Shown here piece by piece: positions 3,129 through 46,920 of a stretch of DNA of 64,000 bases; position 1 is the stretch's first letter; the number at the start of each line of letters is the position of its first letter. A program made the position numbers and the translations under genes. The DNA comes from Loxodes magnus (Eukaryota; Ciliophora; Karyorelictea; Loxodida; Loxodidae). Location of the stretch: NCBI GenBank assembly GCA_946699065.1, contig CAMPDV010001521.1:42649-106648 (forward strand), read 5' to 3'. The notes beneath the pieces were generated by a model that did not search any database, was not told where the DNA came from, and worked only from the letters and a program-made list of their open reading frames with translations.

Positions 3129-4094
3129 AACTCAAGCCGAATTAATTAAATTAAATTAAAGTGTTAAAGAAGGATCGTCTACTTAAAAGCTTCCTACTTC
3201 CCTATCCAACCAATAGGAACTTGATCTCTAGGTAGTCTTCTCCTCCCTTCACTGTCAAGTTTTCGGAATGGTTGTCTCTTCATATAGCTTGCTTTCTTCT
3301 TATAAATTTCTCCATTCCTGGTTGGGTAAAATTAGGTTAGGTCATTCCATATTTTCTATTAAATCTTCTTTCTCTTCCAGCATCGTCTCCATAAGTGGTC
3401 TGTTCTCCTGCAGATGTATCATTTTTTCCTAAAATATTTCTCTTTAGTTTGTTCAATTGGCTTATTATTATCTTATTCGATCTCCATTGGGATAGATTGC
3501 ATAGCCTATTATTTTACACTTGTCTCTAATTTTTCCAATTTGATATGAATATTTTCATTCGATTCGTATAATTGTTCCAGCTGCCTATCGAATTCGTCAA
3601 TTCTGATATTCATTGCAGCCTGGTTTAAGTTTATAGGAGCATGGGTTTCCTCATCTTCTAAATGCTCTTGCTGTTCTTAAGCTAGTTCTTCAATCTGTTT
3701 TTCCAGATCTTTATTTTTTCCTATTAATGCTAAGATAAGCTTAGCCATTTCCTCCTTCGTCATTCCTAAGATTTGTTCTTTATTGAGATCTCCGAGGTCC
3801 ATTTAGGGGTTGAATGTCTTAATCTAGGCCTGAAAGTTACTAATCTTTTGCTTCTTGGGAAGGTCCTCAGTCGATATTGTTGCATGTTAGTGTTTCTAGG
3901 GTTGTCTGGGGGGTGTTGTTTAGAGTTGCTCCTATATGGTTTAAGAAGAAGGTTAGGTTTTGGAAGATGACGTATGGTGTTTAGAAATTTAGGTTTCCTG
4001 CTTCCTCTCTTCCTTTTTAGGTTAGAAAGAGGTGGTATAGAAGCCCTTTTTGAAACCTTCTACCATATTTTTTTTTATAACTCAAGCCGAATTA
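3129..4094 (-). mobile_element. ORF1-only retroelement with 16-bp target duplication (left arm)
   Basis: The same 16 bases, AACTCAAGCCGAATTA, lie at 3129-3144 and 4079-4094 and flank the insert. Long, exact target duplications of this kind are typical of target-primed retrotransposition (non-LTR elements). The insert's 3' end, read on the minus strand, is a run of TTTAA repeats. The insert carries one open frame (3145-4066) and no reverse transcriptase, so it cannot move alone. Confidence 0.8.
3145..4066 (-). CDS. ORF1/Gag-like protein, coiled coil plus altered zinc knuckle (left arm)
   Basis: Inverted copy of the frame at 17883-18804, described there in full. It differs from that copy by at least two substitutions near residue 40 (Ser to Thr and Phe to Ser, from bases near 3946 and 3955). 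The start ATG complement is at 4064-4066, 13 bases inside the target duplication. Confidence 0.7.
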
Positions 4095-7656: not shown

Positions 7657-8994
<1,338 letters not shown>

Positions 8995-9390: not shown

Positions 9391-10140
9391 ATGATAATTT
9401 GTTTCAAATAAAAAGAAATCACGCATAGAAATTGATGCAAAGAAAACCAGAAATTTTAACAAAAATCTAAAACGTCAAATAAAAAACTTACAGACCTCTA
9501 CTCTCTTCCAGGCGCGGAAGGATAATGCTTTTTATGAAACACGGAGAATAAGGATTTTGACAATCAGATCGTTAAGCAATCAATTTGACTTATGAAAAAA
9601 AAATTTTAAAAGCATTTTGAATTAATATTTCTATCAGAAAAGATAAAGGTCCTCTTAAATTCAAGTGAAGAACTTAATTAGGAGAAAAACCACTTAAGTA
9701 ACCAACTGATGCAAGGTCAAGTAGTGACTTAATAGCAACTCTGAAAATAATATTTACCTAGATCGAACAAAGTTGACATAATGAATATTGAATAAGATTA
9801 ATAAGCATAGAAAAAAAAGAATTAATAAGAATAAAAAAATAATAAAACCTCTGACTAGAATAAAAAAGATAGAGAATCACTTATACCCGGAATTCAAGAA
9901 TAAACAATCAAATATAGAAGATGCTGATTCTACCACTCAAAGATTCAATTACTGAAGACCTGCAAAGACTTTAGGCAACTAAAGAGAAAGGAAGAATAAA
10001 TAACGTGAATATAACTTACAAGATTATATGTAACTCCATATGGAGTATTCAAGAAGAAGAGTTTCAACGGAGCAAGAAGATTATCATAGTATATACCTCC
10101 TACATAAAAAACTTGATCGTGGTTTCCACTATGTTAAAAA
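9391..10140 (+). pseudogene. Decayed ORF1/Gag-like frame in the spacer
   Basis: From ATG 9391 one frame stays free of confirmed stops under the ciliate code. It gives a Gln/Lys-rich, probably coiled-coil segment (from about 9590 to 9860) and then a stretch that lines up residue by residue with the zinc knuckle of the family. The second Cys has become Tyr and the His has become Gln (near 9921-9963), so zinc binding should be lost. About 30 residues later comes the family's second motif, here LYVTPYGVFKKK. A two-tier hairpin follows at 10146-10176, as in the copies at 25.8 and 46 kb. I read this as an old ORF1-only element. Low complexity makes the N-terminal part uncertain. Confidence 0.6.
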
Positions 10141-10145
10141 ATGCA

Positions 10146-10176
10146 GCGAGAACCTGGTTTGGATTCCAGGGAACGC
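10146..10176 (+). other. Two-tier 3' hairpin of the ORF1 element
   Basis: Outer stem GCG/CGC (10146-10148 with 10174-10176), inner stem CCTGG/CCAGG (10153-10157 with 10166-10170), with short purine linkers. The same plan, with a different inner stem, follows the frames at 25789 and 46 kb. Confidence 0.6.
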
Positions 10177-10236
10177 AAAATTTTTTTGAATTTTTAGTTT
10201 ACTATTATTATTATTGTTATTGTATTTTTATTAAAT

Positions 10237-12665: not shown

Positions 12666-12954
12666 AAAAATAAATCTTGTTAAATAGCATTATAATTTTA
12701 AATCTTTAAAATTTAATTTATTAAAAAAACTTCTCAAAGACTTAATAAAGATTAATCATATAATATACATAAACTCTTTTCTTTTCAAAATTATCTTTAA
12801 AAAAATTATTATAAATAAAATAATTTTTTTTTAAACTTTTGAAATATCCTATCTTCAGTAATTTTTATAACTCAAGCTTTACTTTTAAGTTTTAATTTAC
12901 TTTTCTAATACTTAAAAACTTTTTAGTGATTTATGAATTAAATGTTTTTAATAC

Positions 12955-14292
<1,338 letters not shown>

Positions 14293-15034
14293 ACTTTTAT
14301 GAAGGTAAGAAGTATCTCTGCTTTTAAAAGGTAAAATGTAGAATACTGGCAAAGAAAAGAAGTTCTAGATGAATGAGTTAGCTAAATGTTTCTTAATCTA
14401 TTCTTATATATTTTATCTATTAGTTTTTTATTAAATCCATATTTACAAGTTACTAAAAGATAATACTACTTAATTTTAGTTTAATTAGTTATATTCTAAT
14501 TTTATTTTAATTAACAAAAATGTCTAAAATAAAGAGATACAGAAGAATTACCTTTGAAAATGTACAGCTACTCTACCATTTAACTAGTTATCTAATAAAA
14601 TATAGGAGAAGAAAAAGTACTTAAATGGCTTTAAGATGAAATATTATTAATCATATTGAAATACTTTGATGGATAAGTAATAAAAATAAAATCTTCTTTA
14701 AATAAAAAAAAGAAATTTAAAATTTGTATTAGACAAAAAAATCAAATAAATACATAAACTTAAACATTTAATTTAATATCTTAAAAGCACTAAGATTATT
14801 TAAATTAAAAGGGTTAATTGTTTTATTAAAAGTATATTATAGAGGTATATTAGTAAGAAGTTAGCAATAATTGATTCAATTGCTAAAGATTAAAAGTTTT
14901 CAAGTTTCAGATAAAATAAAAAATAAATTTCTACTTTAAATATAAAAATGATATCTAAAGAAGATTTACATTTAAGTCAATTAATTAAAAAGCATAAATG
15001 AGAAAAGTATTTTAAGGCTTAGTTAGATAAAAGA
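14293..15034. other. Upstream region of right-arm beta-tubulin
   Basis: Mirror of 6915-7656. Nothing beyond the expected promoter region was seen. One substitution relative to the left arm lies near 14881. Confidence 0.4.
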
Positions 15035-15105
15035 TGCATCAGCCGGGAATCGAACCCGGGTCACTTCGATGGCAACGAAGTATTCTACCACTAGACCACT
15101 AATGC
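15035..15105 (-). tRNA. tRNA-Gly (anticodon GCC), right arm
   Basis: Exact inverted copy of 6844-6914, with complete cloverleaf and T-arm box. Confidence 0.96.
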
Positions 15106-16919
15106 TGTTAAATAATAAATAATCAAAAGTTTAAATAGAATAAAAATATCTTTCTAACTAAGTAATGAATTAATTTTAATAAAATTTGATTACAAAAGGA
15201 TATAAACTAAATTAAAGTAAATCAAAGTTTTTTTCTTAATCCTAAATTATTTTTGTTTAATGTTCATATAGCTCAAAACTTAGTCTTCTTTTAAGATTTT
15301 TTTAATTTATTGGTAGTAGTTAGTAATCAAAGCTAATTTATTATTTCTTTTATAGATAAACTAATTTAAGTTAATATTTTTAGTGCTTTTATTAAGATCA
15401 TTGAGAAACTTTATGTAAATTGAAGTTTTAAACACACTTAAGAAGAATTTTAAAGACAGAAAGTGATTTAAAAATTTTAATTTTATACAATGAGATATTT
15501 TTTATGAATTATGAGCAAAATGTTACTAAGATAAGCATCTAATTTTTATAAATTAAATTATTCTTAATTTTAGTGTATTAAATAACTTGATAGATTCTTT
15601 GATATTTATGAAGAAACTATAAAAATATATAAAAAATGATAATAATTGAAGTTTATTATTTAATTATAGCACTTTTTATAAATAAACAATATTTTCGCTA
15701 AAAATTAAATTTGTAAACGACAAATTAGTTTTTTGATATAATTGTTTACTGATTTGACTATTATATTTAAAAAGTAGCTGATGTTTTCTTCTCATGATAA
15801 ATAAAATTATTTTAAAGCAAAGCAAAAGATTAAAATAATAGGAGATTACTAATAAAAGATAGAATCTTTTTAAATTTATTAAGCAAATATTAATGACAAA
15901 CAGGAGGTTATTAATTATTAACAGAAATAAATTTCATTTTTATTTAAAATGTTTGCTTCACAATAAGTTGCTGTCGTAAATACGTTATTTTACAAAAAAT
16001 GTTAAGCAAATTTTAGTTTTTGTCTCTATTATAATTTAAAACATTTGGCTCATATTATTTTAAAAGGATTCTTTTATAATTACTAATTCAGATATAACAT
16101 ATATGTTTAATAATATTTTTACATTAAGAAAAATTAAATTAAGGAATGCATTTAATATAATTTTCCAAATTAATAATAAAATAGTTGCTTATTTATGAAA
16201 AATAAATTAGCTAAAAATAGATTTTTAAGTTGATCTTTATTTTTTGTTAAGATAGTCAAAAGAGGAACTACTTTATTGCTTTAAAAAATTAGATTTAATT
16301 TTAAGGATTTAAAGTTAGTGAAAGTTACTCTGAAACTTTTTTCGAAGGAAATTTAATAATAAAACCTTTAAATAGCTTTATTTCAAAAAAAATTAAAAAT
16401 TCTACTTACTGTATAAAAAATAATTTTCCAGATATCAATCTCAGCTAAATGTAAAACTATTAAATCTAACCAACATAAGAATTGCAAAATTTAAATGTTT
16501 AAAGCTTTAATTTAAAAAATAAGTGATAGAATATAAAAACAACCTAAGCTAGAGTAAATTTTAAATTTAGCTAGAAGATTTAAAATAATGAAGCTTTGAT
16601 ATTAATAGTATAATAGCTAAATAAATAAGATTATTTTTATTTATCATTTAATTATTAAAAATATGTAAAAAGGGCATTAACAAATAACTTGATTTTAAGT
16701 ATGATTGAGGGAAAAATAAATCCATTAGTAATATTTGAATAAAGAAGACTTAAAATAATTATTTTTAGAATGAACAAAGATACAAGAAAAAGATAAACTA
16801 AACTAACAAAAATCAAATCAAAACAATAATGAAGACCTAAGAGTTTCAGAATGAGAGTGATATCATAAAAATTATTTGATTAAGCTGAAAGACGAACATT
16901 ATTTAATTTAATTTAAAAA
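15106..16919. other. AT-rich intergenic DNA, right arm
   Basis: Mirror of 5030-6843. No gene was recognised. Confidence 0.55.
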
Positions 16920-16991
16920 GGGCTGTTCCGGGAATTGAACCCGGGACCTCTCGCACCCTAAGCGAGAATCATACCACTAGACCAAACAACC
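16920..16991 (-). tRNA. tRNA-Pro (anticodon AGG), right arm
   Basis: Exact inverted copy of 4958-5029. All stems pair, and the anticodon is AGG. Confidence 0.95.
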
Positions 16992-17854
16992 TGTTATAAG
17001 AATATTAAGCAATTGCTTTAAAATGTTTGATAATACAAATAGTTTCTATTAATAATTTAGCTATTTAATATTTATAAGATAAAACTCCTTTTAATTTTCC
17101 TTTTTAATATAGTAAACTAATAATATGAAATATCAGTTTAACAAACTAAACACTAAATTAAGTAATTAAAAGTCTTCTAAGTTTCTATTCTTAAACCTAG
17201 AAAAATTTCATAAAAGGCTGTAAAAATAGCGATAAAACGCTTAATTATTTATTTAATTACAATAAAATTAAAATTATCCTTTTAAGAATATTGAAGTAAG
17301 TGAAGAAGGAAAAGTTGCTAGTAAGCAACTTTACTTTTGATGAAAAGGAAGATATTAAAAAATATTAAATATTAAAGATAAAAAATAAAAGTTAGATTTG
17401 CAATTATATAAAATAGCATCTTATAAAAAATCAAATAATTTCTATAAAGCTAAAATATTAAGGTCATAAAAAATTAAAAAATAGTTTTATAATTAAATAT
17501 GAAGAAAGAAAGAAGATATAAAAGATTTAAATAAACAGATTTTGCAAAAGATTTAACAATTACTGAATTTAATGAAAAAATTTTAGAAAGAATATTCCAA
17601 AATGAATTAAAAAAATATTTATGATATAAGTTAAAGAATTCTAAACTAAGGAATGAAATATATTTAGATAGCGAAAGAATTTATTTATAATTTAGAGTAA
17701 AAATTATTAAAATAGTTAGAAAAATTTAAATAACAAAAATTCGAAAAGAACTTAATAAGGCAGAAACTTATATGGAAAATAAGTAATTTGTCTTTACTAA
17801 TGAAAATAAGTTGAAATAGATAATATATAAGAAAGAAATTATAAAAATGGATGC
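16992..17854. other. AT-rich intergenic DNA, right arm
   Basis: Mirror of 4095-4957, including the small AGTTGC/GCAACT hairpin near 17312-17329. Otherwise nothing was recognised. Confidence 0.5.
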
Positions 17855-18820
17855 TAATTCGGCTTGAGTTATAAAAAAAAATATGGTAGAAGGTTTCAAA
17901 AAGGGCTTCTATACCACCTCTTTCTAACCTAAAAAGGAAGAGAGGAAGCAGGAAACCTAAATTTCTAAACACCATACGTCATCTTCCAAAAGCTAACCTT
18001 TTTCTTAAACCATATAGGAGCAACTCTAAACAACACCCCCCAGACAACCCTAGAAACACTAACATGCAACAATATCGACTGAGGACCTTCCCAAGAAGCA
18101 AAAGATTAGTAACTTTCAGGCCTAGATTAAGACATTCAACCCCTAAATGGACCTCGGAGATCTCAATAAAGAACAAATCTTAGGAATGACGAAAGAGGAA
18201 ATGGCTAAGCTTATCTTAGCATTAATAGGAAAAAATAAAGATCTGGAAAAACAGATTGAAGAACTAGCTTAAGAACAGCAAGAGCATTTAGAAGATGAGG
18301 AAACCCATGCTCCTATAAACTTAAACCAGGCTGCAATGAATATCAGAATTGACGAATTCGATAGGCAGCTGGAACAATTATACGAATCGAATGAAAATAT
18401 TCATATCAAATTGGAAAAATTAGAGACAAGTGTAAAATAATAGGCTATGCAATCTATCCCAATGGAGATCGAATAAGATAATAATAAGCCAATTGAACAA
18501 ACTAAAGAGAAATATTTTAGGAAAAAATGATACATCTGCAGGAGAACAGACCACTTATGGAGACGATGCTGGAAGAGAAAGAAGATTTAATAGAAAATAT
18601 GGAATGACCTAACCTAATTTTACCCAACCAGGAATGGAGAAATTTATAAGAAGAAAGCAAGCTATATGAAGAGACAACCATTCCGAAAACTTGACAGTGA
18701 AGGGAGGAGAAGACTACCTAGAGATCAAGTTCCTATTGGTTGGATAGGGAAGTAGGAAGCTTTTAAGTAGACGATCCTTCTTTAACACTTTAATTTAATT
18801 TAATTAATTCGGCTTGAGTT
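17855..18820 (+). mobile_element. ORF1-only retroelement with 16-bp target duplication (right arm)
   Basis: TAATTCGGCTTGAGTT occurs at 17855-17870 and again at 18805-18820. Between them lie 934 bases with one frame and a 3' tail of TTTAA repeats. This is the footprint of target-primed reverse transcription. No endonuclease or polymerase is encoded, so movement would need a helper such as the LINE at the window's right end. A short hairpin, CCTAT/ATAGG, near 18732-18748 stands where other family members carry their 3' hairpin. Confidence 0.8.
17883..18804 (+). CDS. ORF1/Gag-like protein, coiled coil plus altered zinc knuckle (right arm)
   Basis: ATG 17883 lies 13 bases inside the target duplication. 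With TAA/TAG as Gln the frame is open through the whole element. The order is: N terminus MVEGFKKGF, similar to MSGFKPGFF of the 25.8-kb copy; a Gln/Ser/Pro-rich stretch; an acidic coiled-coil-like segment (about residues 90-200) containing NIRIDEFDRQLEQL; then a CCHC-type zinc knuckle with Cys219, His224 and Cys229. The first Cys of the knuckle is replaced by TGA at 18528-18530. Read as Trp it destroys the first ligand; read as stop it ends the protein there. Downstream comes the family's second motif, here FYPTRNGEIYKKK. No TGA stop lies inside the element. ORF1 proteins of this type bind RNA in non-LTR retrotransposons; that role here is inferred. Confidence 0.72.
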
Positions 18821-18824
18821 GAAG

Positions 18825-19310
18825 ATTTTAAAGAGTATGTTAGGAGAGGAGATGAAGACAAATGGATAAAGTAATAATTTAAGTAAAAAAAGGATTGGAG
18901 GTAGAGATAATGCAAAGATTAAAAATAATAAAGAGAAGATAAAGAGATAAGAAGAAAGAAGTAAGATAAGAGAATTAATTATTGACGATAATAGGAGGAG
19001 TAAAAAGGAATTTCAAGTAGGAGAGAGTAAAGAAGGATAAAAAGCAAAAAAGTAAAAAAAGAAAAATGAAACGTAAATTTCAAAGAATTAAATATTAAGA
19101 AAAGATTTTAGTTGAGCTTAAAGAGTCTTAAAATATTAAGAAGAAAATAATGTAAAGATAAAAAGAGAAGAAGTAAGAAGCAAGAAGTATTTAAAAGTAA
19201 AGAGCTAAGAGATATTAGAGAGTAAAAACAGTGTTTTATTTAAAGCATGAAAATTTTTAAAGTGCTTTTTGCTCAACGTTTATAATGCATGAGGTTTTTT
19301 GGAAGGACCT
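18825..19310 (+). other. Purine-rich tract, right arm
   Basis: Plus strand nearly all A and G. It gives a Lys/Glu/Arg-rich frame without a known domain. The ORF1 element abuts its left edge. Mirror of 2639-3124. Confidence 0.4.
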
Positions 19311-19572
19311 ATAAACTTTAAATTTTTTATATATATGAAAAATTTTAAATTTTTAAAATTCATTTAAATTTCAGAAAACAACTTTTACGCTCAGAATTTT
19401 ATACAATAGTAAATTTTTTGAAGTGAGTTTTTTTTATATATAAGATTATTATAAACCGATAAAAATAATTTAAATTTTATATATTTTTCAATTTATAAAA
19501 ATTTGATATAAACAAATCAATTAATTTGGATTCATTTTTATTAAGTTCATCACAATTAATAAAAGAAATCAA

Positions 19573-19866
19573 ATAACTATTATTTAGAAAAATTTAACAA
19601 ATAATTGGTCATTTGACACAAATAGTGGAATGCTCTCTAACCCCTTCTAACTCCAGTCTATGGAAGAATTACACGAATTTGAAGAGTGAAGGCAATCATC
19701 TTTGATTATAAAAACGGAGAGAAGAAGTTAAGAATCAAAGAGACTAGATGAAGATAGAAACATTTCTTGTTTATTTTTAATAATTAAATTTGGTTTCTTC
19801 AATTTTTCGTGGTGAACCAAACAATGGTGGTACCACGCTAATTTAATTTATTAATTTAATTAATTT
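19573..19866 (+). repeat. Dispersed repeat family E, right arm copy
   Basis: Alignable with 29420-29690 over most of its length. It ends with the CGTGGT/ACCACG hairpin and a TTAAT-repeat tail. A plus-strand frame of about 70 residues is possible but unrecognised. Confidence 0.7.
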
Positions 19867-21647
19867 ATTTAAAAATTAGTTTTTATTATTCTTTTTATAC
19901 TCACTTTTTCAATAAAAAGCTATTATTATAAAATATATATTTTTAGAATTTTCATTAAAGAAATATTTTGCTCTATATCTGATTTTAGTAATTTTAAATA
20001 AATAATCTTTCTAAGCTAATTAAGAAAATATAGTTTTGACTTATTTAAGATTAATCCCATTGTTTTATACTTTTTATATGTTTTAAACTTATTTCTTAAT
20101 GTAAATGAATCATAATTATTAAATAACTTTATTCTATTTCTTTTCTTAAATATAATCTAGAAAGGTAGATTCTACTTGAAGGTTAATATATTTCTAATAT
20201 TTTTATTAATATTATTTTGCTTAAGTGAAAATATAAAAAACTATTTGTTGAATAATTCTTAAGCTTTAGGTTCTAATACTTAAAGAATAAATTTCTTACT
20301 AATAGATTAAATAAATCTAAATTAAATTTAAACTTATGACATCTTATTATTAAATATGATTCTCAAGTCTAGGAATCTTTAGAAAAGACTTAAATTAAGA
20401 TAATAAGCCTTAATATAAATTTGTAAGGCAAAGCAATTTATATAAGTTATTTATTTTAGTCAACAAGATAGAAAAAAACCAAAAAGTCAGTAATACAGAT
20501 ATTATAGAGTTTAATATTAGTTAAACTTAATTTATATAAGAGAATCAGTTTATGGTATATTATCTATTTTTTTACCAAACATTTAATCTGATGGAAGCAA
20601 CAATTTTAGAAAATAAATTTAATTCTCAAATTTCTAATTAGTTGTTAACACTATAATCTATTTTAAAATATAATCTAAAACCTAATGTTCAAATTAGTTT
20701 TCAATTTATTCTATTTAAATGCTTATAGTTAAAAAACTATATAAAATAAATAATTTTTCAAAAAGATGAAATAATAGTTAAATATATTATAAAATGAATA
20801 TAATTTTAAATAAGTATAAATTATCTTTTATTACTATTAAAACCTAAAAGATAAACAAAATATTATAAAAATTACTACATCATTTTTAGTTAATTGAGAA
20901 AATAAAATAAATAAATTTATGAATTTTAAATTTAAAAAATAATATTTGTATTTATAAGATAATCGATTACTTATCAAATAACTATTTTAATTTATTTTAA
21001 TGCTTAAAGTTTATAAAGCTACAAATATTAAAATTAAAAAGATAAAAGTTAAATTATACATAACTATTTAAAAAATTATTAAGTATTCAAAATTAAAGAA
21101 ATAGATTTAGTTTTATTTTTAATATTTTTATTTATTTAAATGAGTCATAATAGAAACTATAAATATACCATATAAAGCTTTTATAAATATATTTATAATT
21201 ATTCTCATTCTATTATTGTTTTATTCTACTCTTTATAAACTCCTATCTTTTCTTATTTTACTTAAATTAAAGATTTAAATAAGAAATATTTTAGAAATGT
21301 AATAAATAAATTGGAAAATAGATTTCCCTTTTATTTAAAAAATAAATGATGGAAAGTATCTACAAACCTCTTCTAAAGGATATCAATTTTTATAAATTAT
21401 TTTGTTTTAGATAAAATTAATCTGACTATAGCAAATAAATTTAAGGATTGTTTACTAATATTATTTATATTAAGTAGCATTTAAGTATAAATAATTCTTA
21501 ATTGTTAAGATTTTTCTAGTTTATAATTAAAAAGATTAAGAACATATTATATTAATAAACTTATAAATTAAATATAACTTTTATATTATTTTTAAACAGA
21601 ATTTATTATAACTATTTAAAGAAAAAATTAAATTAAATTACTAAAAA
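19867..21647. other. AT-rich intergenic DNA, right arm
   Basis: Mirror of 301-2082. Nothing was recognised. Most of the substitutions seen between the arms fall here and in its partner. Confidence 0.55.
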
Positions 21648-22999
21648 ATGAAGGAAATTGTGTAAATTTAAGTAGGTTAATGTGGAAATTAAATTGGAAG
21701 TAAGTTCTGGGAATAAATTTCAAATGAACATGGAATTGAGCTAATGGGAATTATCAAGGAGATATAGATTTATAGCTTGAAAAAATAAATGCTTATTTTG
21801 ATGAAACTAAAGGAGGAAGATTTGTTCCTAGATCTATTCTTATTGATTTAGATTCTGGTGTATTAGATTCTATTAAAGCCAGTACTTTCGGATAATTATT
21901 TAAAACTGCAAATTTTATTTTTGGATAAACTGGTACGAGCAATAACTGAGCAAAAGGCTTTTATTCTGAAGGAGCTGATTTAATAAGCTAAGTTTTAGAT
22001 GTTGTAAGAAAAGAAACTGAAGTTTGTGATAGTTTATAAGGATTTCAAATGTCTCACTCTTTAGGAGGAGGAACAGGATCTGGATTGGGAAGTCTTATAA
22101 TATCCAGATTAAAAGAATAATTTCCAGATAAAATAATTTAAACTTTCTCAGTGTTTCCTTCTCTAAAAGTATCTGATATAGAATTAGAACCTTATAATAC
22201 TATCCTTAGTATTAATTAATTAATAGAGAATTCAGATATAGCTATGGTAATAGATAATGAAGCTTTATATAATTAATGCTTTAGAATTTTAAAATTAACA
22301 AATCCAACGTATGGAGATTTAAATCATCTAATAGTAAATACTTTGAGTGGAATAACAACTAGTTTAAGATTTCCAGAGTGTATAAATAATGATTTAAGAA
22401 AGCTTGCTTGTAATTTAGTTCCTTTTTCAAAAATCCATTTTTTAACTATCAGTCTTTCCCCTTTAAATTCACGTGGAAGTAGTTAATGTTAATAATATAC
22501 AGTTCCAGAGTTAACTTAATAAATTTTCAATGCGAGAAACTTAATGTGTGCAGCCGATCCAAGACATGGTCGATATTTAACAGCAGCCACCTTTTATAGA
22601 GGAAGAGTCTCAGCAAAAGAAATAGATGAGCAGTTGTTGAATGTTTAAAATAGAGGTTTATCTTATTTTATAGAGTGAATTCCTAATAGCTTAAAATCAT
22701 CTATATGCAACATTCCAATAAGATGATTAAGAACTTCAGCTACATTAATAGGAAATAATACTGCAATAAAAGAGAATTTTATACGAATAGGTTAGCAATT
22801 TTCAACTATATTTAATAGAAAATATTTTATTAAATGATATATTGAGGAAGGTATGGATGAAAATGAGTTTACTGAAGCAGAATTAAATATAAAAGATTTA
22901 ATATCAGAATATTAGAAATATGAAGATGCTGTAGTGAATGAAGATTCTAAAGATAGTGAAATTGAAAGTGAAGAAAGTGAGGATGAAGAGATACTGTGA
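21648..22999 (+). pseudogene. Divergent beta-tubulin pseudogene (right arm, complete)
   Basis: Recognisable as beta-tubulin along its whole length: M-K-E-I-V start, GGGTGSG at about 22065, [12 protein letters not shown] AADPRHGRY at about 22555, and an acidic tail ending in TGA at 22997-22999. One base is missing near 21746-21752 (codon 35 region), which breaks the frame. The length, 1352, is one short of a multiple of three. Elsewhere the frame is intact, with TGA at Trp positions. Many usually invariant residues are changed (for example MGTLLISK has become a weaker match, and many Asp and Arg residues are replaced). Both arms share the deletion, so it is older than the inverted duplication. 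Confidence 0.88.
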
Positions 23000-24774: not shown

Positions 24775-25135
24775 AAATATAAATATTAAAACATAATTAT
24801 AAAGCAAAGCTTTAAATATTTAATTCAATTATAATAAAATTAAAATTAATAAATTTATTTAGCCAACATAAAAAACTTTAAATTATCATGATCAATAATT
24901 AATAAAGCTCAAGAACATATTATGATACTTTAAAATATTTATTTTATAGAAAACTTAGTTGGAAAAAGGAAAAATAAATTAGATTAAAATTAAAAAAAAT
25001 CTAAACGTTTTTGTAGATTAATAATCAACATATTAACCTAATTTTCTTAGTAAATAATTATTATTCACATATACTTTTATTATTTTTTCTTTACTATTAA
25101 TATCTCTATAATACTTTATTATCATATTTATTTAA
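24775..25135. other. AT-rich spacer between two SINE-like elements
   Basis: No gene or repeat was recognised. Confidence 0.5.
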
Positions 25136-25510
25136 AATAGGGTGGAAAGCCCTTTCCTTCGGATGCTACTTGGAAGCCTTGCAAGGCAACTAAAAAATGA
25201 GCGCGGACGGAGAATAAATCGGAGAAAGAGAAAACAATAACAAGAGAAGGAAGATTCGATAAGCTGGAGAACTCTGAATGGCAGGAGAAAACCTTCTTCA
25301 TAGATTGGGGAAAGATGTACCCGTAATCGTATATTGCATCCTATGCTTTGGAAGGAAAAATTACAGGGACGTACTGCAGGAAGAGAAAATAAGGATAGAG
25401 AGACCCATAAAATTTTATTTTTCGACATTAAATAAAATTAATTTAAAGAGCTGCGCACCAACGAGAGGGCTACGCGCTCTATAATCCAATTTATTTATTT
25501 ATTATTATTA
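25136..25510 (+). mobile_element. SINE-like element, group B, copy 1
   Basis: Starts AATAGGGTGGAAAGCCCTTT, forming hairpin GGAAAG/CTTTCC at 25144-25157. The middle carries a module, GGGGAAAGATGTACCCGTAA, related to the group A core. It ends with GAGCTGCGCACC...CTACGCGCTC at about 25447-25480 and a TTTA tail. It is nearly identical to 47126-47488 over its whole length. Short frames on either strand are not conserved as proteins between the copies. Confidence 0.8.
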
Positions 25511-25788: not shown

Positions 25789-26690
25789 ATGTCAGGATTC
25801 AAACCAGGATTCTTCGCGGCTCCTAAAAAATAGGAGTTAACGACATCCTATAAAGGCTAGGATCAGGAAAAGGGTAACAAAAAGGTCACCCATCAGGATG
25901 AATCTTCCACCTCTTAAGAAAAGCCTAGGAAATAGGCTAAGAATATTATGCGCTCGGATGACTCGAATCTCATCACATAATAGTAAATAAGCTATGATTA
26001 GCTGATTAAAGTGGTTCTAGACCTCCAGGAAAAGGTCAAAAAGTTGAAGAAAGACAATAAGAAGTTAGTGAAAAAACTTGAACTTGCAGAGGAAATAGAA
26101 TCGAGACTCATGACCTAAGAAAGAGACATTAACGCATTTTGAAATATATCACAAGACTAGAGCAATTAATCTCAAAACTAACAATAGAAGCAGAGAGAAC
26201 TGATCAGCAAATTTGAAAAAATAGAAGAAAATCAGTACAAATTGCAGCTTCAAATGGAATTGAAAGAATAAAGGAATGATAATAATTGAAGGTGAAAATA
26301 ACTCAAGATTTAAACCTAAACTACAAACAAAAAGATGTTATTATTGTAACTCTCAAAAGCATCTGTGGAAAAAATGCTAGAAATTTCTCAATTTCAAGTA
26401 AGAATATTGAAACTATTAGGAGTAGTTGGAGAAAAAAAGAAAGAAACTTTAACAAATAAAACTATCAAGAGAAAGAGAAAGAGAAAGATTATACTGTAAA
26501 AAATTTGAGGAAATTTACAAGAAAAAGACATCTAGCATCTAGGTGTAAGAAGAATTAAAAGACAACATGAATGGCAAGGAAAATAGTTGTAGAAATGTTC
26601 AGACTTTTATATTAAGCCTCTAGAGGCTGGCGGGAAAGAGGTTGAAATACCTCCAAGAACGCCAAACACTTAATTTTGTATTTGTATTTG
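25789..26690 (+). pseudogene. ORF1/Gag-like element, best-preserved zinc knuckle
   Basis: ATG 25789 opens MSGFKPGFFAAPKKQE. A coiled-coil-like Lys/Glu/Gln segment follows (about 25970-26270). The knuckle at 26336-26377 is a perfect C-x2-C-x4-H-x4-C (CYYCNSQKHLWKKC). It lies one frame ahead of the ATG, and two TGA codons in the first frame follow at about 26285, so at least one indel has broken the gene. Downstream, RLYCKKFEEIYKKK matches the second family motif. The 3' end has the hairpins at 26616-26663 and a tail of TATTTG repeats. A second copy is at 46003-46920. This is the reference member for the family. Confidence 0.75.
26616..26663 (+). other. Two 3' hairpins of the ORF1 element
   Basis: First, the palindrome GCCTCTAGAGGC (26616-26627). 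Then a two-tier hairpin: outer GGCG/CGCC (26629-26632 with 26660-26663), inner GAGGT/ACCTC (26638-26642 with 26649-26653). The same layout follows the frames at 10146 and 46 kb. Confidence 0.65.
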
Positions 26691-28370: not shown

Positions 28371-28920
28371 ATATAATATAGATTTTATTAAGCATCATAA
28401 AGAATTTTGGATCTTTTAAGCTATAAATGATAACTAAATATAAAGCTACTAGGAAAGTATGAAAATAGCAGATTGAACAAACTTAGGGAAGATTTTCTTA
28501 AGTATAGGGTTAAAGAGAATATACAATATGATATATAAATAATAAAGATTAGCATCATAATAGAATAAGCCTAATATCAATTATATATTTAAAAAGAGGA
28601 AAGTAATTATAACTTTACTTTAACTTTTTCATGGTTATTAATACGTAATCTTACAATTATTTAATAAGTATAAAACTAGAAAGTATTGTACAAATCATTA
28701 TAAATAAAAAAGGTTAAACATATTATACTGATTAAGAGTTTATTGTCTTTTAAATTGAGTTAATAAGAACAGGGATAAGCAAACAATATTTGATAGATTT
28801 AATCATTTTTCTTCTAGAAGAAGCATTTATGTTTACTTCAACATAAAAATTGAAAATTATTAAATCATTAAGATCTAATTAAAGTTAGAAAGTCTAATAA
28901 AAGAAATTAATATAAATAAA
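28371..28920. other. AT-rich intergenic DNA
   Basis: No feature was recognised. Confidence 0.45.
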
Positions 28921-29085
28921 ATGGAAAATTACTTGTAAAAAATCTCATCTCAAAAGATTCATCTTAGTCAAGTTACTATTAATAAACAGTACTTTAAGAA
29001 CTCCAAGTCATGCAATTAGAAAATTTTAAATTCTTAAGAACTGTAAAAGAAATCGAAAGGAAAATTGAACACATGATGATTAATT
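28921..29085 (+). pseudogene. Fragment of an ORF1 N terminus, duplicated at 29701
   Basis: Begins MENYLQK, similar to MEKNLGI of the 32.8-kb copy. The nucleotide sequence is clearly related to 29701-29860, with scattered substitutions. The two copies bracket the GC-rich island and the family E repeat. Confidence 0.5.
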
Positions 29086-29419: not shown

Positions 29420-29690
29420 AATAACTATTATTTAGAAGAATTTAACCTAATTGAATCATTTGACACATATAGTGGAATACTCTCTAATTTCATCCTTTGG
29501 AAGAATTACAAGATATTAAAGAGTGAAAACAATCAATTTTGATTATAAAAACGGAGAGAAGAAGATAAGAATCAAAGAGACCAGATGATGCTAGAAACAT
29601 TTCTAGCCTATTATAATAATTAAATTTGGTTTTTTTTTTCTTGGTGAACGAAACAATGGTGGTACCACACTAATTTAATTAATTAATTTA
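29420..29690 (+). repeat. Dispersed repeat family E, third locus
   Basis: Similar to 19573-19866 from AACTATTATTTA to the TTAAT tail, with many substitutions. The 3' segment AATGGTGGTACCAC is conserved, but the outer stem is weakened by mismatches. Confidence 0.7.
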
Positions 29691-29699
29691 TATAAATAA

Positions 29700-30290
29700 A
29701 AAAATAGAACATTTCTTGAAAAAGTCTCTTCTAAAAGGATTAATTTCAGCCAAACTATGATCAGTAAAAGATACTTTAAGACCTCAAAATTATGCAATAA
29801 AAAAATTTTAAACTTTTAAGATAAGTATAAAAGCTCGAAAGGAAAATTGAATACCTAAATGCGCAAAAAACTGAAAATAAGTAGACAGCAAATATCAGAA
29901 TCGACCAGTTAGAAACAAAATTCAACCAATTTGCAGAGCTGAAGGAAATCATATTCCTTTGAAATATATCGATGAAAGATCAGATGGATTTGGAATAACA
30001 ACCTTAGATAAATTATATTTCCTATCGGAAAATAATGAGATACTGATATTGCAAGAGGTTAGGACATAAAGTGTGAAATTGTTTCCAATTTTAACTAAAA
30101 GAAAAGAGAATCATAGAAAATTAATGGGAAAATATATTCAGACTATTTTGCAATTAAGAAGAACAATTTTACAGAAAAAAATACTAAAATTAAGCAAAGA
30201 AGCTCCAATATTTAATATGCAGCTAATTAATTCAATAAGAAATGAATGGGACTCGAGCTTTCGGAAACTATTAGGAAGAGTAAACTAAAA
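29700..30290 (+). pseudogene. ORF1/Gag-like remnant
   Basis: One frame reads K-L-E-R-K-I-E-Y then NIRIDQLETKFNQF, which matches NIRIDEFDRQLEQL of the arm copy. Next comes a knuckle-like YCKRLGHKVWNC whose first Cys is Tyr, and then LFCNQEEQFYRKK, the second family motif. The N-terminal part lies in another frame, so the gene is broken. It is probably the continuation of the 28921 fragment, with other elements inserted between. Confidence 0.6.
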
Positions 30291-31896
30291 ATCATCAGGT
30301 TTTATGATAGACATGATCCAAGCAAATTTGAAGTTAATACTTTTATTCAACAATAAACTTTTAATTCGCGATGAACCAAATATAGATGAAATCAAGTTAA
30401 TTAATTATTAATATTATTATATAATTTTGTTAGTTTCAATTATTTATAATTAAAAATTTAATTAAATTCATTAAAATGTGTAATTATTAATAAAAAATTT
30501 AAAGTTACTAAAACTTAAGATCTTTAAATACAAAATTTTATATTTATATGGGATATTAAAGTTTGATTATAATTGAGATATTTAGCAATTTTTCCACTGA
30601 CTACTTGAATATTTGGAGATTTAAAATAGATCTAATGCTTTTGAAATCTAAAATTTGATCCTTTTTCTTGTGTATTATCTTGAAAGTCCTATTCTCTCTA
30701 TAAGCTGCTTTAGATTTTCATCTATTTATTTTTCTGCTTCATTGCAGTAAAATTTTTATTTTTTCTTTTTATTTTCATTAGATATCATCTTTTCTGTAGC
30801 TGCTGTCTCTTTCTGATTTTTTTCAGTAGTTTAACTTAAATTTTAATAATTTTTGACAATATTGTAAATCTGTTCTTTAATATTGAAAAATGCCTCTTTT
30901 TTTTTTGATATTGTCTTTTAACCAGCAGATTTTTCTTTCTGCATAATATCCTCTTTTAGATCTTGAAATCTTACTGATATTATAGCTGTTTTTGATTTTA
31001 ATTTTTCTCTATTTAGTCATATTCTATTTTAAATTTTTTATTATATTTATGATATTAGCTGTATTGGCTATGTTACATATTTCAAAAGGTATTTAAATGA
31101 CATTGCTATATAATCTATAATCTTTTTCTTCTTGCTTGTTGAAATTTTCAATATTATCTTTTTTTAAATATTTTGATCTCTTCCTAAAGTTTTATTACCA
31201 TTTAACTAATTATAAGAAACTTTCTTTCATCTTATTTGTTAATTTTGATACTTCTCGCTGTGCAGGGAACTCTTTAAAATTAGAGATAAGCTTAAGCATT
31301 TAAGATAATTGTAAGACTTATAAAATAATGAAAATTAATTAAATAATAAAATATAACTACTTTAAATTAATTACTTACTAAGAAATTAATTATTCTCTTT
31401 TTAAATTTAGGTTTTTCATAATTTATCGTTTTATTAGTCAATAGTCACTTATAATAACTAAGCTTTATTGATAGTATCCATTTAATTAGATATTAAGTTT
31501 ATTTAAAACTATAATCCTTTTAATATTTCATACTTCTATTTTTAATATTTAGGATTTAATATTTAGATTATAAAATCTAATTTTTAAGTAAGATTTAATA
31601 ATTTACTAAGACTTGCTATAAATTAGACTTCAGTCATTTTACATTAGCAAGAGGCTTCTATAATATTATTTATCTCTATTAGCAAATAATTAATATAATT
31701 TAAATAAAATCTACTTTATTTTTAAAGCTTATTTATCAAAATTAAATTTATTATGCTAAATTCCTTGCTTAAATTATTTTTTGTTAAAGTAGCAATAAAA
31801 TTTAAATAATAAGAAAATAGCTTTACTTTTATAGAAATAATTTACTTGTTTAATAAAGATTTATTTAATTAATTTTAACTATAAGGGTTAGGATCA
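30291..31896. other. AT-rich DNA with a weak minus-strand coding-like stretch (30600-31280)
   Basis: Between about 30600 and 31280 the minus strand gives Lys/Gln-rich frames, one ending FYCNEAEK then a coiled-coil-like segment. No domain is recognised, and frame changes would be needed. It may be another ORF1 remnant. The rest is featureless. Confidence 0.3.
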
Positions 31897-31932
31897 TCTT
31901 TAATTAGAGGAAATCTTTCCTCAAATTAAAGA
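31897..31932. terminator. Strong hairpin 3' of an ORF1 frame
   Basis: Nine pairs (TCTTTAATT/AATTAAAGA), one mismatch, seven more pairs (GAGGAAA/TTTCCTC) and a 2-base loop. It lies 26 bases beyond the stop of the minus-strand ORF1 frame. By position it corresponds to the 3' hairpins of the other family members. A role in 3' processing or reverse-transcriptase recognition is inferred; the terminator type is only the nearest label. Confidence 0.45.
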
Positions 31933-31957
31933 CAATAAAAGTTTTTATATTCAGAAC

Positions 31958-32810
31958 TCAACTGTATATGTCTTCATCTGAATCAATTTCAAACTGAGAT
32001 AATTCTTCTTTCTCTTCAATAAGCTCATAGAATTGCTCTTCCATCTTCTTATAATTTTTCTCCGGCTTCTCTAAACTAATTCTAAGGTCATTGTTGTCCT
32101 TTTAAAGCTATTTATTCTGTTACTATTAATTACCAATATCCTGTTTGATTAGCGTCACACTTGAATCATTTAATATAAACTTCTTTCTGTAAATACCTCC
32201 AAAGTAGTTACAATATAGCCTCCTCGATGTTCCAAATTATTTACGGTGCTGCTCAAGCACTCTTCTTCACTTCGGACATTACCTCCAAAAATGTCCAGCC
32301 TTTTGAAAACAATAGCAACGTTTTATTAAGGGCTTGAATTAAAATTTTTATTCTGTTTACATTTTTTCAATTTCCATCTTTTCTGATTGAAGCTAGTTTT
32401 TTTTTGATTGGTAATCGAATTTCTTCTTTAATTTTCTATTGATTTGCTTCTAGGTTTTTTTCTAATAGTTCAAATTAGGAAGTTAAGGCTTCAATTTAAA
32501 ACTAAATTTTACTTACCAGGTCTTGGTCTTCCTTTTTTCTATCTTAAAAAAGAAGCCGAAGATTCAAGTTTTCCGCCTTCAGGATCTATATTTCGGTATT
32601 CATTTTCTCAATTAATGAATAAAGCTAAATAATGTCTTGCTCGTGGGATTTCTCAAGCTTTTTCAGTTTGTTAGGAAATTCCGTATTTCCCAATCCTTAA
32701 CAGGAGTAAATTTATCTTTTTTGAATTCTTGGTTCTTGTTAGTTAACTGAGACTTAAGATTGATCTTTAAGGTTAGAATTCAAGGTTTAGATTCCAAGGT
32801 TTTTTTCCAT
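31958..32810 (-). pseudogene. ORF1/Gag-like element with one frameshift
   Basis: Start complement 32808-32810 (MEKNLGIQ), stop TGA complement 31958-31960. A coiled-coil segment covers roughly codons 50-130. The knuckle RCYCFQKAGHFWRQC keeps QKAGHFWRQC, like retroviral knuckles, but has Cys one position early (C-x-C instead of C-x2-C). The second motif, RLYCNYFGGIYRKK, follows, then an acidic tail ending DSDEDIYS. The two halves are in different frames; the switch fits one extra base in the run of nine As on the coding strand (32397-32405). Total length 853 supports a single +1 indel. A strong hairpin follows at 31897. Confidence 0.7.
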
Positions 32811-33088
32811 TTTAAAAAAAATATTTTTAAAGATTTATTTATTTACTATATATCTAAATTTATGTGTTTTGACTCAAATAAATTTAATAATAAAAACCCA
32901 AATTATTAATTCTTTCTCACTTAATTATCAATTTTATATCTCAGATTTTAATTAATACAGACCTAAGAAATTTTAATTTAGCTTATATTTTTAATTTTTT
33001 TAATTTAACTATTTTCGTTCATCTATAAATTTGATGTATTTAGAATGAATAAATTTATATTATATTTATTATTTTTAAAGTCAATGAT

Positions 33089-34450
33089 TCATATTATTTC
33101 CTCATCCTCACTTTCTTCATCTTCACTTTCCTCTACTCCATATTTTTTATCTTCTTCTATTATTGCATCTTGGTATTATTAATATTCTGAAACTAAATCA
33201 CTCATATTTTATTCTGCCTATATAAACTCACTTTCATCCATGCCTTCTCCTGCATATCAATGTAAAAAAGCTTTTCTTTTAAACATAGCTTAGAACTGAT
33301 TTCCTATTCTTTTAAATATGTCTTAAATAGCTGTATTGTTTCCTATTAAAGTAACTGAAATATCTTAAAATTTTTATGGAATATCACAAAAGGATCATTT
33401 TAAGTTATTAGGGATTCATTCTATGAAATAAGGATTATTTATACTCTATACATTTTATATTTCATCATCTACTTCTCTTGCTGATATTCTTCCTCTAAAA
33501 ATTGCTGTTGCTGCTAAATAACGACCGCGTCTTGGATCAGACTAGCTCATCATATTTCTAGCATCAAACATTTATTAAATTAATTCTGCGACTGTTAAAT
33601 GCTTTTAAGAATAGTAACTGCCACGTGATGTTAAAGGAACACTACTACTCATAAAAAAATGTAGTCTTGGAAAAGGAACTAAATTATAAGCTAGCTTTCT
33701 TAAATTATTATTCAATTCACCTTGAAATCTTAAACTAGTTGTGATTCCACTCATTGTAGATGCTATTAAATGATTTAAATCCCCGTATGTTGTATTTTTC
33801 AGTTTTAAGGTTCGAAAACATATATCATATAAGGCTTCATTATCTAATATCATCACTTCATCTGAATTTTCTATTAAATAATTTATACTTAGAGTTGCAT
33901 TATAAGGTTCTACTACTGTATCAACTGCCTTTGGAGAAGGTAAAACAGTAAAAGTTTAAATAATTTAATCTGGAAATTCTTCTTTTAATTTAGATATTAG
34001 AAATGTTCCCAATCCTGAACCTGTTCCACCACCAATGGAGTGATCTATTTAAAATCCTTATAAGCAGTCACTATATTCAACTTCTTTTCTTACAGTATCT
34101 AAAATAAAATCTACTATCTCTGCTCCTTCAGTATAATGTCCTCTTGCTCAATTATTACCTGCTCCTGTTTATCCAAAAATAAAATTATCCAGTTTAAATA
34201 ATTATCCAAAGGGACCAGCTCTAACAGAATCCATTGTGCCAGGTTCTAAATCTGTAAGAATAGATCTAGGAATAAAATTTCCTTCCTTAGCTTAATTAAA
34301 ATAAACATTGATTCTTGATAGTTATAAATCAGAATCTCCATTATAAATTCCAATTGGATCTATTCCATGCTCATTTTAAATGTACTCCCAAAACTTAGTA
34401 CCGATGTAATTTTCACACTAACCTATTTAAATCTACACAATTTCTCTCAT
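33089..34450 (-). CDS. Divergent beta-tubulin paralogue, intact
   Basis: A continuous frame of 453 codons before TGA (complement 33089-33091). Trp101, Trp344 and Trp397 equivalents are TGA and Trp21 is TGG. The signature GGGTGSG is kept, as are GQC near residue 10 and LTSRGS. Differences are heavy: GQCGNQIG reads GQCENYIG, PRHGRY reads PRRGRY, and [11 protein letters not shown] reads [11 protein letters not shown]. The tail is acidic ([11 protein letters not shown]) but unlike the arm genes. An intact frame over 1.3 kb in AT-rich DNA argues for selection, now or recently. It is closer in style to the decayed copy at 21648 than to the arm genes. Function in a specialised microtubule is possible but unproven. 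Confidence 0.9.
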
Positions 34451-34895
34451 TCTTCTACAATTATTATTCCCTCATTTTAAATTGATCGAAACTGGTAAAT
34501 GAGAATATTAAATACCTATATTTATCAAGGCTATAAAGAATGATAAATATCAGTATGCTTAATTAACAAGATAGGAATATATCTAAGCATAATTGAAAAT
34601 GTAGTTCAAAAAGAAGATTTAATAAAATATCAAGTTTGAAAATAAAATGAAAGCTTAAGAATTAAGTAAAGGTATCTTATAGATATCTTTTAGCATAGAT
34701 AAAAAAAGAAATAATAGGGATCTAAGGAATAAAACTTGGCTTTTTAGAATAATTATTAGGATTAAGGATTTGTAGAAGAAACTCCTTCTTATACTTATAA
34801 ATATCTTTTTATTTATCTGATTTAAAGCATTTTACTTTAGTTCCTCATTATTAACTAAATAATAATTAAATTATTAATTTAATATTTTTAAAAAC
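34451..34895. other. AT-rich upstream region of the divergent tubulin
   Basis: No feature was recognised beyond the expected promoter position. Confidence 0.4.
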
Positions 34896-35410
34896 CGCCA
34901 TAGTTGTTCGAAGGTGAACAACAAGGTCATCTTCATCGGAGGTTGGGGAAGTTAAGTACCCATAATCGACTTTATGTCTTCCTCTGCTTTGGTTTGGCCT
35001 CGAGACATAAGATTCTTACACCTTCGACACTGGCTTGGCTTGGTTTCGTTTATTTTTAATTCTGGAACGAAAAAGAAATAATATTGCGAGCTTCATCAGA
35101 GGTGGGGAATTTAAGTACCCATAATTGACACATGTCGTCCTCTGCTTTGGTGATGCATTATACACAATCCTGGCATGTCCTTGGACCTCCAACAAGTAGA
35201 TAAGATTACGAGTATTCTTAAATTATATCAGTATTGAACATTTTTATCAGTACTGGATAATTATACCAGTATTGAACAAAGTTTACCAGTATCTGATAAT
35301 TTTATCAGTAAGAAACATTCTTGTCAGTATGAAACATTTTTTTTAAAGAGCTGCGCACCAACGAGAGTGCTACGCGCTCTATAATAAAATTTATTTATTA
35401 TTTATTTATT
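34896..35410 (+). mobile_element. SINE-like element, group A, copy 2
   Basis: Full-length form with both modules: GGGGAAGTTAAGTACCCATA near 34945 and GGGGAATTTAAGTACCCATA near 35104. Then come three to four imperfect TATCAGTA-type repeats and the terminal hairpin at about 35347-35380, ending in a TTTA tail. AATATTTT-like sequence on both sides may be a short target duplication, but it is low-complexity. It is nearly identical to the inverted copy at 37012-37520. Confidence 0.85.
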
Positions 35411-37011: not shown

Positions 37012-37520
37012 AATAATAAATAAATAAATTTTATTATAGAGCGCGTAGCACTCTCATTGATGCGCACCTCTTTAAAAAAATGTTTCATACTGACAAGAAT
37101 GTTTGTTACTGATAAAATTATTCAGTACTGATAAAAATGTTCAATACTGGTATAATTATCCAGTACTGATAAAAATGTTCAATACTGATATAATTTAAGA
37201 ATACTCGTAATCTTATCTATTTGTTGGAGGTCCAAGGACATGCCAGGATTGTGTATAATGCATCACCAAAGCAGAGGACGACATGTGTCAATTATGGGTA
37301 CTTAAATTCCCCACCTCTGATGAAGCTCGCAATATTATTTCTTTTTCGTTCCAGAATTAAAAATAAACGAAACCAAGCCAAGCCAGTGTCGAAGGTGTAA
37401 GAATCTTATGTCTCGAGGCCAAACCAAAGCAGAGGAAGACATAAAGTCGATTATGGGTACTTAACTTCCCCAACCTCCGATGAAGATGACCTTGTTGTTC
37501 ACCTTCGAACAACTATGGCG
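37012..37520 (-). mobile_element. SINE-like element, group A, copy 3
   Basis: Two-module form on the minus strand. TTAATAATAA occurs at both ends (about 37010 and 37533) and may be the target duplication. It has one more TATCAGTA-type repeat arrangement than copy 4. Terminal hairpin at about 37040-37075. Confidence 0.85.
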
Positions 37521-37642
37521 GTTTTAAAAATATATATTAATAATAACTTAATCAAATGTTTTATATTTAGAAGACTAATTTCACTTAATTTTCTAATGAT
37601 AAATAGATGAATTTGAATAAATCAAATATAATTTTTAAGTTA

Positions 37643-46002: not shown

Positions 46003-46920
46003 AGTTGAAAAAATAATATATCAGGATTTTTTGCGGCTAAAATTGTAGGAGTTAATGAAATCCAAGAGAGACTAGGACCATGAAAAGGGAACCAAAAAAA
46101 GTTATCCATTAAATCGTATCTCCCACTTATGAAGAAGAGTTTAGGCAATAGGCTAAAAGTATTATGCGTTCAGAAGTCTCCAATCTCACCATAGAATAGT
46201 AAATAAATTATGATTAGCTGATAAAAATGGTGATAAACCTCCAGAAAGAGGTCAAAACTGAAGAAAGATAATAAGAGATTGATGGAAAACTTGAAATTGC
46301 AGAAGAAATAGAATTGATAATCCTGGCCTAAGAAAAAGACCTTAATGAATTTTGAAATATTTTACAAGACTAGAAAAATTAATCATAACACTTAGAATAG
46401 AAGCAGAAAGAACTGGTCAATAAAAAAGAAAAATAGAATAAAACCAGCAAACATTTTAGCGTTAAACGGATTTACAAGAATAAGAAAACGACCCAATGAT
46501 AATCAAAGGAGAAAAGAACTCGAATTTAAATCTAAACGAGAATTAAAAAGATTTATTATTGCAACTCTCGAACGCATCTATGAAAAAGATGCTAGAAATT
46601 TCAAAGCTTTAAATAAAAATACTGAACTACTAGAAAAAGTTAGAGAATAAAAGAAGATACAAAAACAACTAAAACTAAAAAGAGAAAGATTGTATTGCAA
46701 CAAATTTGGTAAAATATACAAGATGAAAGATACCAATCATTATATAGGCGAAAGGATTCCTCAAGAGCATTATGCATAACAAGGAGAAGAGTTGTAGAGA
46801 AATCCAAACTTTTATATATAGCCTCTAGAGCAATCTAGAGGTTAGCGGGAAAGAGGTTAAAATACCTCCAAGAACGTCAAAATATTTAATTTTATATTTG
46901 TATATTAATTAAAGTTGAAG
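46003..46920 (+). pseudogene. ORF1/Gag-like element, second copy of the 25.8-kb type
   Basis: Alignable with 25789-26690 almost end to end. The start codon is lost: the region of MSGFKPGFF is deleted to ATATCAGGATTTTTTGCGG. The first Cys codon of the knuckle has lost one base (near 46550), although YCNSRTHLWKRC follows in frame. The second motif reads ERLYCNKFGKIYK. The 3' hairpins are kept (about 46821-46884). TAAAGTTGAA lies on both sides (about 46002 and 46910) and may be a 10-bp target duplication. Confidence 0.72.

What the first reader, a model, noticed from the sequence alone, without database searches (positions are those of the whole stretch)
25789..26690. A new-looking family of ORF1-only retroelements
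Six or more loci (left and right arm, 9391, 25789, 29700, 31958, 46003) encode a coiled coil, a CCHC knuckle and a second motif with consensus near LYC-x3-F-x2-IYKKK. None carries endonuclease or reverse transcriptase. At least the arm copy is bounded by a target duplication, so these moved as ORF1-only units, like the half-LINE (HAL1) elements of mammals. I know of no such description for karyorelicts.
Basis: partly seen in the sequence, partly recalled or inferred. Interest (0 to 1): 0.8.

Follow-up and report, generated by a model that had tools for sequence, protein, structure and literature searches.

The report
Ciliate retroelements encoding only ORF1
A ciliate genome carries many copies of a short jumping element that encodes only a presumed RNA-binding protein and no copying enzyme, and some copies look newly inserted, so it probably multiplies by borrowing the enzyme of larger elements.

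Summary
The genome (705.7 Mb, size of the Loxodes magnus macronuclear assembly) gave, for copies A, C and D, 40 of 40 scored matches near full length (first-look candidates 3991, 1545, 1610; the rest unscored). Units are 0.90-0.95 kb. Copies B, C and D have 10-16 bp target duplications; so do 6 of about 13 A-type sites and 3 of 4 fetched D-type copies. Four elements tested have no LTRs or inverted repeats. No EN/RT was seen downstream where looked for. D-type matches are 98-100% identical; two at different sites differ at 0 of 905 positions. Three sampled LINE families have other ORF1 proteins and 3' ends; only about 12 N-terminal codons of D resemble one LINE's leader. Best reading: several lineages of non-autonomous ORF1-only non-LTR elements, at least one recently active, moved in trans by LINE enzymes; the helper was not identified.

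The parts
25789..26690 (+). Copy A: ORF1-only element, frameshifted; query for the genome search; TTTGTA-type tail; no clear target duplication
46010..46909 (+). Copy B: ORF1-only element, 74.7% DNA identity to A; flanked by TAAAGTTGAA at 46000-46009 and 46910-46919
31868..32813 (-). Copy C: ORF1-only element of a second family; flanked by TAAATAAATCTTTA at 31854-31867 and 32828-32841 (14 nt lie between the 5' duplication and the start shared with most genome copies); frame with the second motif ends at a TGA
3145..4078 (-). Copy D (left arm): ORF1-only element of a third, young family; flanked by exact 16-bp TAATTCGGCTTGAGTT at 3129-3144 and 4079-4094; first knuckle Cys codon is TGA in this copy
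17871..18804 (+). Mirror of copy D in the right arm of the palindrome, same duplication at 17855-17870 and 18805-18820
26336..26377 (+). CX2CX4HX4C knuckle of copy A
26489..26518 (+). Second motif of copy A (LYCKKFEEIYKKK)
9391..10200 (+). Copy E (tentative): decayed knuckle and second motif by eye; profile E 0.29; ends not set
29697..30400 (+). Copy F (tentative): knuckle and second motif by eye; ends not set; a partial relative of its 5' part lies at 28905-29072

Best explanation
These are related families (A/B, C, D) of non-autonomous, ORF1-only non-LTR retroelements of about 0.90-0.95 kb. Each starts a few A-rich bases before an ATG, encodes one protein of about 290-310 residues (basic N-terminus, long helix that is probably a coiled coil, CCHC knuckle, second conserved motif) and ends in a short AT-rich tail. 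The element RNA is probably bound by its own ORF1 protein and reverse transcribed at a nicked target by the endonuclease/RT of an autonomous LINE acting in trans. Shown: common ends, target duplications at many copies, no LTR or inverted repeat in four elements, ORF1 only, open ORF in four of four fetched D-type copies, very recent copies. Inferred: RNA binding, target-primed reverse transcription, help from a LINE, and which LINE.
For: A-type: 40 of 3991 candidates scored, all nearly full-length, 30 fetched; 11 flank clusters, about 13 sites by eye. Duplication score of 12 or more in 5 of 11 cluster representatives plus L030, against 1 of 660 control pairs. D-type: 40 of 1610 scored, all from base 1-7 to 933-934 of 934, 98-100% identity; 4 fetched: frame 0 without TGA and CCHC intact in 4 of 4, exact duplications of 14, 16 and 14 bp in 3 of 4; L071 and L072 differ at 0 of 905 positions with different flanks and duplications. 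C-type: 40 of 1545 scored; leaving out 8 on contigs that look like the window's own site, 23 of 32 start at the same base, 3 nt before the ATG. In L070, L071, L072 and C the only direct repeats found at the ends are the duplications, and there are no inverted repeats. A-type majority reading: TGA at codons 118, 209 and 289 in frame 0, 6 and 8 TGA in the other frames. B against the majority of 13 insertions: third-position excess p=0.0065 over the ORF, 5.7e-5 in the post-hoc stretch nt 450-750. RVT_1 is abundant (150 of 3403 candidates scored, all over the cut-off) and EN plus RVT_1 were confirmed in L062.
Against: The 3' ends do not match those of the three LINE families sampled, so no helper is identified. 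Seven of about 13 A-type sites, including copy A, and L073 have no convincing duplication. In one search, 9 of 32 C-type copies start elsewhere (5 of them at base 1 or 3). D-type frames carry no TGA before the flank, so no own stop codon is visible. The knuckle is a motif match; Pfam gives no zf-CCHC hit. The third-position signal is weak outside nt 450-750 and could be inherited from a full-length ancestor. The 3' hairpins get little covariation support (3 of 18 pairs, covariation term +0.71).
Confidence: 0.85

Rival explanations
1. The copies are 3'-truncated or internally deleted remains of full-length LINEs with the same ORF1, not separate units.
For: LINEs are abundant and mostly incomplete in Loxodes magnus (PMC11441545, passages); the first 12 or so codons of D resemble the leader of the main LINE (23 of 26 bases against at most 18 in 2000 shuffles).
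Against: Common 5' and 3' ends over many sites, target duplications at those ends, recent identical copies. The body of LINE ORF1 shows no convincing match, and sampled 3' ends differ.
Confidence: 0.06
2. Retrocopies of a host gene family for a coiled-coil CCHC protein, made by LINE machinery.
For: Copies starting near the ATG with target duplications fit a processed retrocopy; a host source gene was not sought (not tested).
Against: At least three diverged families, each with many copies; ORFs open in recent copies; tails are TTTAA or TTTGTA runs, not simple poly(A).
Confidence: 0.08
3. Gag-only LTR retroelements or DNA transposons.
For: CCHC knuckles are common in Gag proteins (recalled).
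Against: No terminal direct or inverted repeats besides the target duplications in the four elements tested; duplication length varies (10-16 bp).
Confidence: 0.01

Closest known systems
HAL1 (half-L1) of mammals
   Same: Non-autonomous, encodes only an ORF1 protein (PMC5753468, passages).
   Different: HAL1 derives from L1. Here the sampled LINEs have a different ORF1 and different 3' ends; the protein has a CCHC knuckle and no strands in a low-confidence model; at least three families coexist.
HeT-A of Drosophila
   Same: Non-LTR element with a Gag protein and no pol gene (PMC5537684, passages).
   Different: HeT-A adds to chromosome ends; these elements are interspersed, many with target duplications.
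SINEs using LINE 3' ends
   Same: Short, non-autonomous, AT-rich tails; six window repeats (for example near 10625, 25443, 47434) share the main LINE's 3' end at 90-95%.
   Different: The ORF1-only elements encode a protein, open in recent copies, and do not share that 3' end.
[quoted passage not shown]
   Same: Probably the same genome: 706 Mb in the paper, 705.7 Mb here.
   Different: Those carry EN and RT and are 5-6 kb; the word ORF1 does not occur in that paper's main text (passages seen, supplements not).

Membership tests
Non-LTR retroelement | Target site duplications of variable length | tested here: met
   B, C, D in the window; 6 of about 13 A-type sites; 3 of 4 D-type copies; absent or unclear in the rest
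Non-LTR retroelement | No LTRs or terminal inverted repeats | tested here: met
   on L070, L071, L072 and copy C only
Non-LTR retroelement | Simple-repeat or poly(A) 3' tail | tested here: met
   TTTAA runs of different length in D-type, TTTGTA-like in A-type
Non-LTR retroelement | Own EN/RT (autonomous members) | tested here: not met
   No Pfam EN/RT within 3.3 kb downstream of places A-F; hence non-autonomous
HAL1-type half-LINE | Encodes ORF1 only | tested here: met
HAL1-type half-LINE | ORF1 derived from an autonomous LINE of the same genome | tested here: inconclusive
   Only the N-terminal leader of D resembles LINE L062; three LINE families sampled
HAL1-type half-LINE | 3' end shared with a LINE of the same genome | tested here: inconclusive
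   No match of A, B, C or D 3' ends to the LINE 3' ends sampled, three families; other families not seen
L1 ORF1p | Coiled coil plus RRM plus CTD (recalled) | tested here: inconclusive
   No significant Pfam match; model shows helices only, mean pLDDT 49
HeT-A | Located at chromosome ends | tested here: inconclusive
   Copies lie inside contigs; telomeres were not mapped

The most novel reading that the evidence does not exclude
ORF1-only elements form a long-lived lineage of their own in karyorelict ciliates: several families whose ORF1 is not that of the LINEs they exploit, whose protein is kept by selection because it packages its own RNA in cis, and at least one of which is active now, with an A-rich leader of about ten bases and, in the D family, an ORF without its own stop codon.
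Probability: 0.4. Interest if true: 0.75.

Novelty: new variant of a known kind. Interest (0 to 1): 0.62.

Why it matters
Why LINEs need ORF1 at all, and whether ORF1 protein acts in cis, is hard to test because ORF1 and RT usually sit on one RNA. An abundant, recently active element that keeps only ORF1 separates the two in nature. It also adds to the account of how a ciliate without extensive genome editing carries its mobile elements.

Tried and rejected
Protein search with copy D against 5.8 billion proteins: 655 candidates, none at E<=1; that collection evidently holds no protein of this genome's elements. Pfam, PDB and phage-collection searches gave nothing significant for ORF1. The second motif lines up position by position with the first knuckle in A, but D-type has no Cys there, so I leave it as a conserved motif of unknown role. 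blastp of ORF1 against LINE frames without composition correction gave many low matches in all frames, some with better E-values than the N-terminal match of D (0.002 against 0.012), so the leader resemblance rests on the DNA test, whose 26-base length was chosen after seeing the match. Flank clustering appears to join sites with different immediate flanks (L015/L025; L017, L020/L030). In one search L071 was given in a wrong frame; that row was left out. L031 was fetched and not analysed; L069 matched no other LINE piece and was not used. HeT-A passages were sought in PMC3357415 without result.

Full report
What was checked. The window is contig C1521:42649-106648 of an unnamed 705.7 Mb assembly of 7843 contigs. 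The size matches the 706 Mb macronuclear assembly of Loxodes magnus (PMC11441545, passages); identity is inferred from size, code and content. Three tubulin frames in the window read TAA/TAG as Gln and, pooled, TGA as Trp 11 times against 2 TGG. Pfam names a stretch of one of them Tubulin; 'beta' and 'karyorelict code' are recalled.

The copies in the window. A (25789-26690) and B (46010-46909) are 74.7% identical. C (32813-31868, minus) and D (4078-3145, minus; mirrored in the right arm of a palindrome) are more distant relatives. The knuckle is C-x2-C-x4-H-x4-C in A and in the four fetched D-type genome copies; B, C and the window's D each have lost a Cys. The second motif is LYCKKFEEIYKKK in A, LYCNKFGKIYKMK in B, LYCNYFGGIYRKK in C and FYPTRNGEIYKKK in D. 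The cited loci 9391 and 29700 show decayed versions of both motifs by eye, but a profile gave E 0.29 for the first and did not list the second among its 14 best.

Ends and target duplications. D lies between exact 16-bp repeats, C between 14-bp repeats, B between 10-bp repeats. In one search, with one mismatch allowed, D scored 16 and B 12; C scored 9 because the stretch given stopped short; A scored 8, E 8 and F 11. Of 344 random pairs one reached 12 or more (13). Repeat finding on L070, L071, L072 and C shows the duplications as the only direct repeats at the ends (L071 and C have one further internal pair each) and no inverted repeats.

Genome, A-type. The DNA search with A had 3991 first-look candidates, of which 40 were scored, all close to full length; 30 were fetched. 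Nine (L001-L009) share the window's own site. The others share nearly the same 5' start (A-rich bases, then ATGTCAGGATTC or near it) and the same 3' end (CACTTAATTTTGTATTTGTATTTG or near it), with unrelated sequence outside. Flank clustering gives 11 groups, about 13 sites by eye. Duplication scores of 12 or more occur in L011, L019, L021, L023 and L024 and L030; 1 of 660 controls reached 12. L001, L010, L015, L017, L018, L025 and L028 show none that is convincing (best scores 6-10). Blastn of the downstream 1.5 kb of all 30 against three sampled LINEs found an antisense LINE 225 nt away (L019) and short sense LINE 3' pieces 285 nt (L024, L026, L027) and 882 nt (L030) downstream; none continues from the element. 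Pfam was not run on these flanks.

Genome, D-type and C-type. D: 1610 candidates, 40 scored, every one from base 1-7 to 933-934 of 934, at 98-100%; five lie on C1521, C1473 and C1299 and look like the window's own site. The query ended at the element's ends, so only fetched copies show the ends. Four others were fetched with about 60 nt of flank. In 4 of 4 the frame is open from the ATG through the tail without TGA and the knuckle is intact; exact duplications of 14, 16 and 14 bp flank L070, L071 and L072, only 8 bp L073. L071 and L072 differ at 0 of 905 positions although flanks and duplications differ; the window copy differs from the four at 14-15. This implies very recent movement. The TTTAA tail differs in length between copies. 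C: 1545 candidates, 40 scored, 93-100%; of the 32 not on contigs that look like the window's own site, 23 start at the same base, 3 nt before the ATG, 4 others within bases 11-16 of the query, and 5 at base 1 or 3. No C-type copy outside the window was fetched.

Coding and selection. In a majority reading of A-type copies frame 0 has TGA at codons 118, 209 and 289, the other frames 6 and 8. L018 keeps the N-terminal, knuckle and C-terminal marks in one frame and reads through to codon 288 with TGA as Trp; most fetched copies are frameshifted. B compared with the majority has 47, 46 and 68 mismatches at codon positions 1, 2 and 3 (p=0.0065); the excess is strongest in nt 450-750, a stretch picked afterwards (14, 12, 33; p=5.7e-5), and absent in nt 0-300 and 750-867 (p=0.29, 0.53). 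A-type singletons spread over codon positions (101, 95, 114), as expected for decay after insertion. D-type ORFs show no stop of their own before the flank; I cannot tell how translation would end. The A-type 3' end folds into two hairpins with weak covariation (3 of 18 pairs changed on both sides, covariation term +0.71).

LINEs in the same genome. The RVT_1 search had 3403 candidates, 150 scored, all over the cut-off. L062 carries EN and RVT_1 and aligns with L064 over 5.5 kb; L068 belongs to the same family; L065 and L063/L066/L067 are two other families. L062, L063 and L064 have a different upstream CCHC protein; L065 gave no strict motif match. One link was found: the start of L062/L064 reads MVSFKKGFYTTS, in another frame than the main ORF1 body, and D reads MVEGFKKGFYTTSF; the best 26-base stretch matches at 23 positions against at most 18 in 2000 shuffles. 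The 3' ends of A-D do not match the sampled LINEs beyond AT-rich stretches. By contrast, six SINE-like repeats in the window share the L062 3' end at 90-95%, two more at 79-84%.

Protein. No homologue in the protein search and no significant Pfam domain. The AlphaFold model of the L070 ORF (6 sequences) has mean pLDDT 49; it shows a long helix, residues 104-190, shorter helices and no strands, so a coiled coil is plausible and an RRM is not seen, at low confidence.

Comparison and novelty. The architecture is that of HAL1 (ORF1 only; PMC5753468, passages); HeT-A is another case without pol (PMC5537684, passages). I searched the held papers for Loxodes with retrotransposon (3 papers), ciliate/non-LTR/ORF1/zinc knuckle (28 papers, 15 listed) and ORF1-only or half-LINE terms (15 papers; 5; 17, 8 listed). 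I saw titles and abstract starts; none of those listed describes such elements in a ciliate. Only open-licence papers are held, and the supplements of the Loxodes paper were not seen. I rate it a new variant of a known kind.

Noticed in passing
window 1-9286 and 12663-21948: Inverted repeat 99.8% identical; copies A and C also recur in opposite orientation upstream of the window (C1521:37929-38834 and 31235-32189), so the arms extend well beyond; real palindrome or assembly product not decided.
   Followed up: partly
window 7657-8990 +, about 21650-22990 +, about 33070-34450 -: Three diverged tubulin genes (75-78% DNA identity), using TGA for Trp.
   Followed up: partly
window 10210-10702, 25118-25497, 34870-35410, 37012-37546, 47109-47488, 51381-51759: SINE-like repeats ending in the same 3' sequence as the main LINE family.
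   Followed up: partly
window 2091-2377 and 29420-29690: Repeat whose end resembles the 3' end of the LINE family of L063/L066 (by eye); probably truncated LINE copies.
   Followed up: no
L070-L073: D-type ORF has no TGA before the flanking DNA, so no own stop codon in a code where TAA and TAG are Gln.
   Followed up: partly
window 53400-59410 -: Long beta-helix protein frame (PF13229, E 2.7e-30, in 55300-59409); a stretch at 53494-55125 is 64% identical to 39226-40775.
   Followed up: no
G000 C5131 and C20: RVT_1 matches repeat about every 2.5 kb, as in a tandem array of LINE pieces.
   Followed up: no
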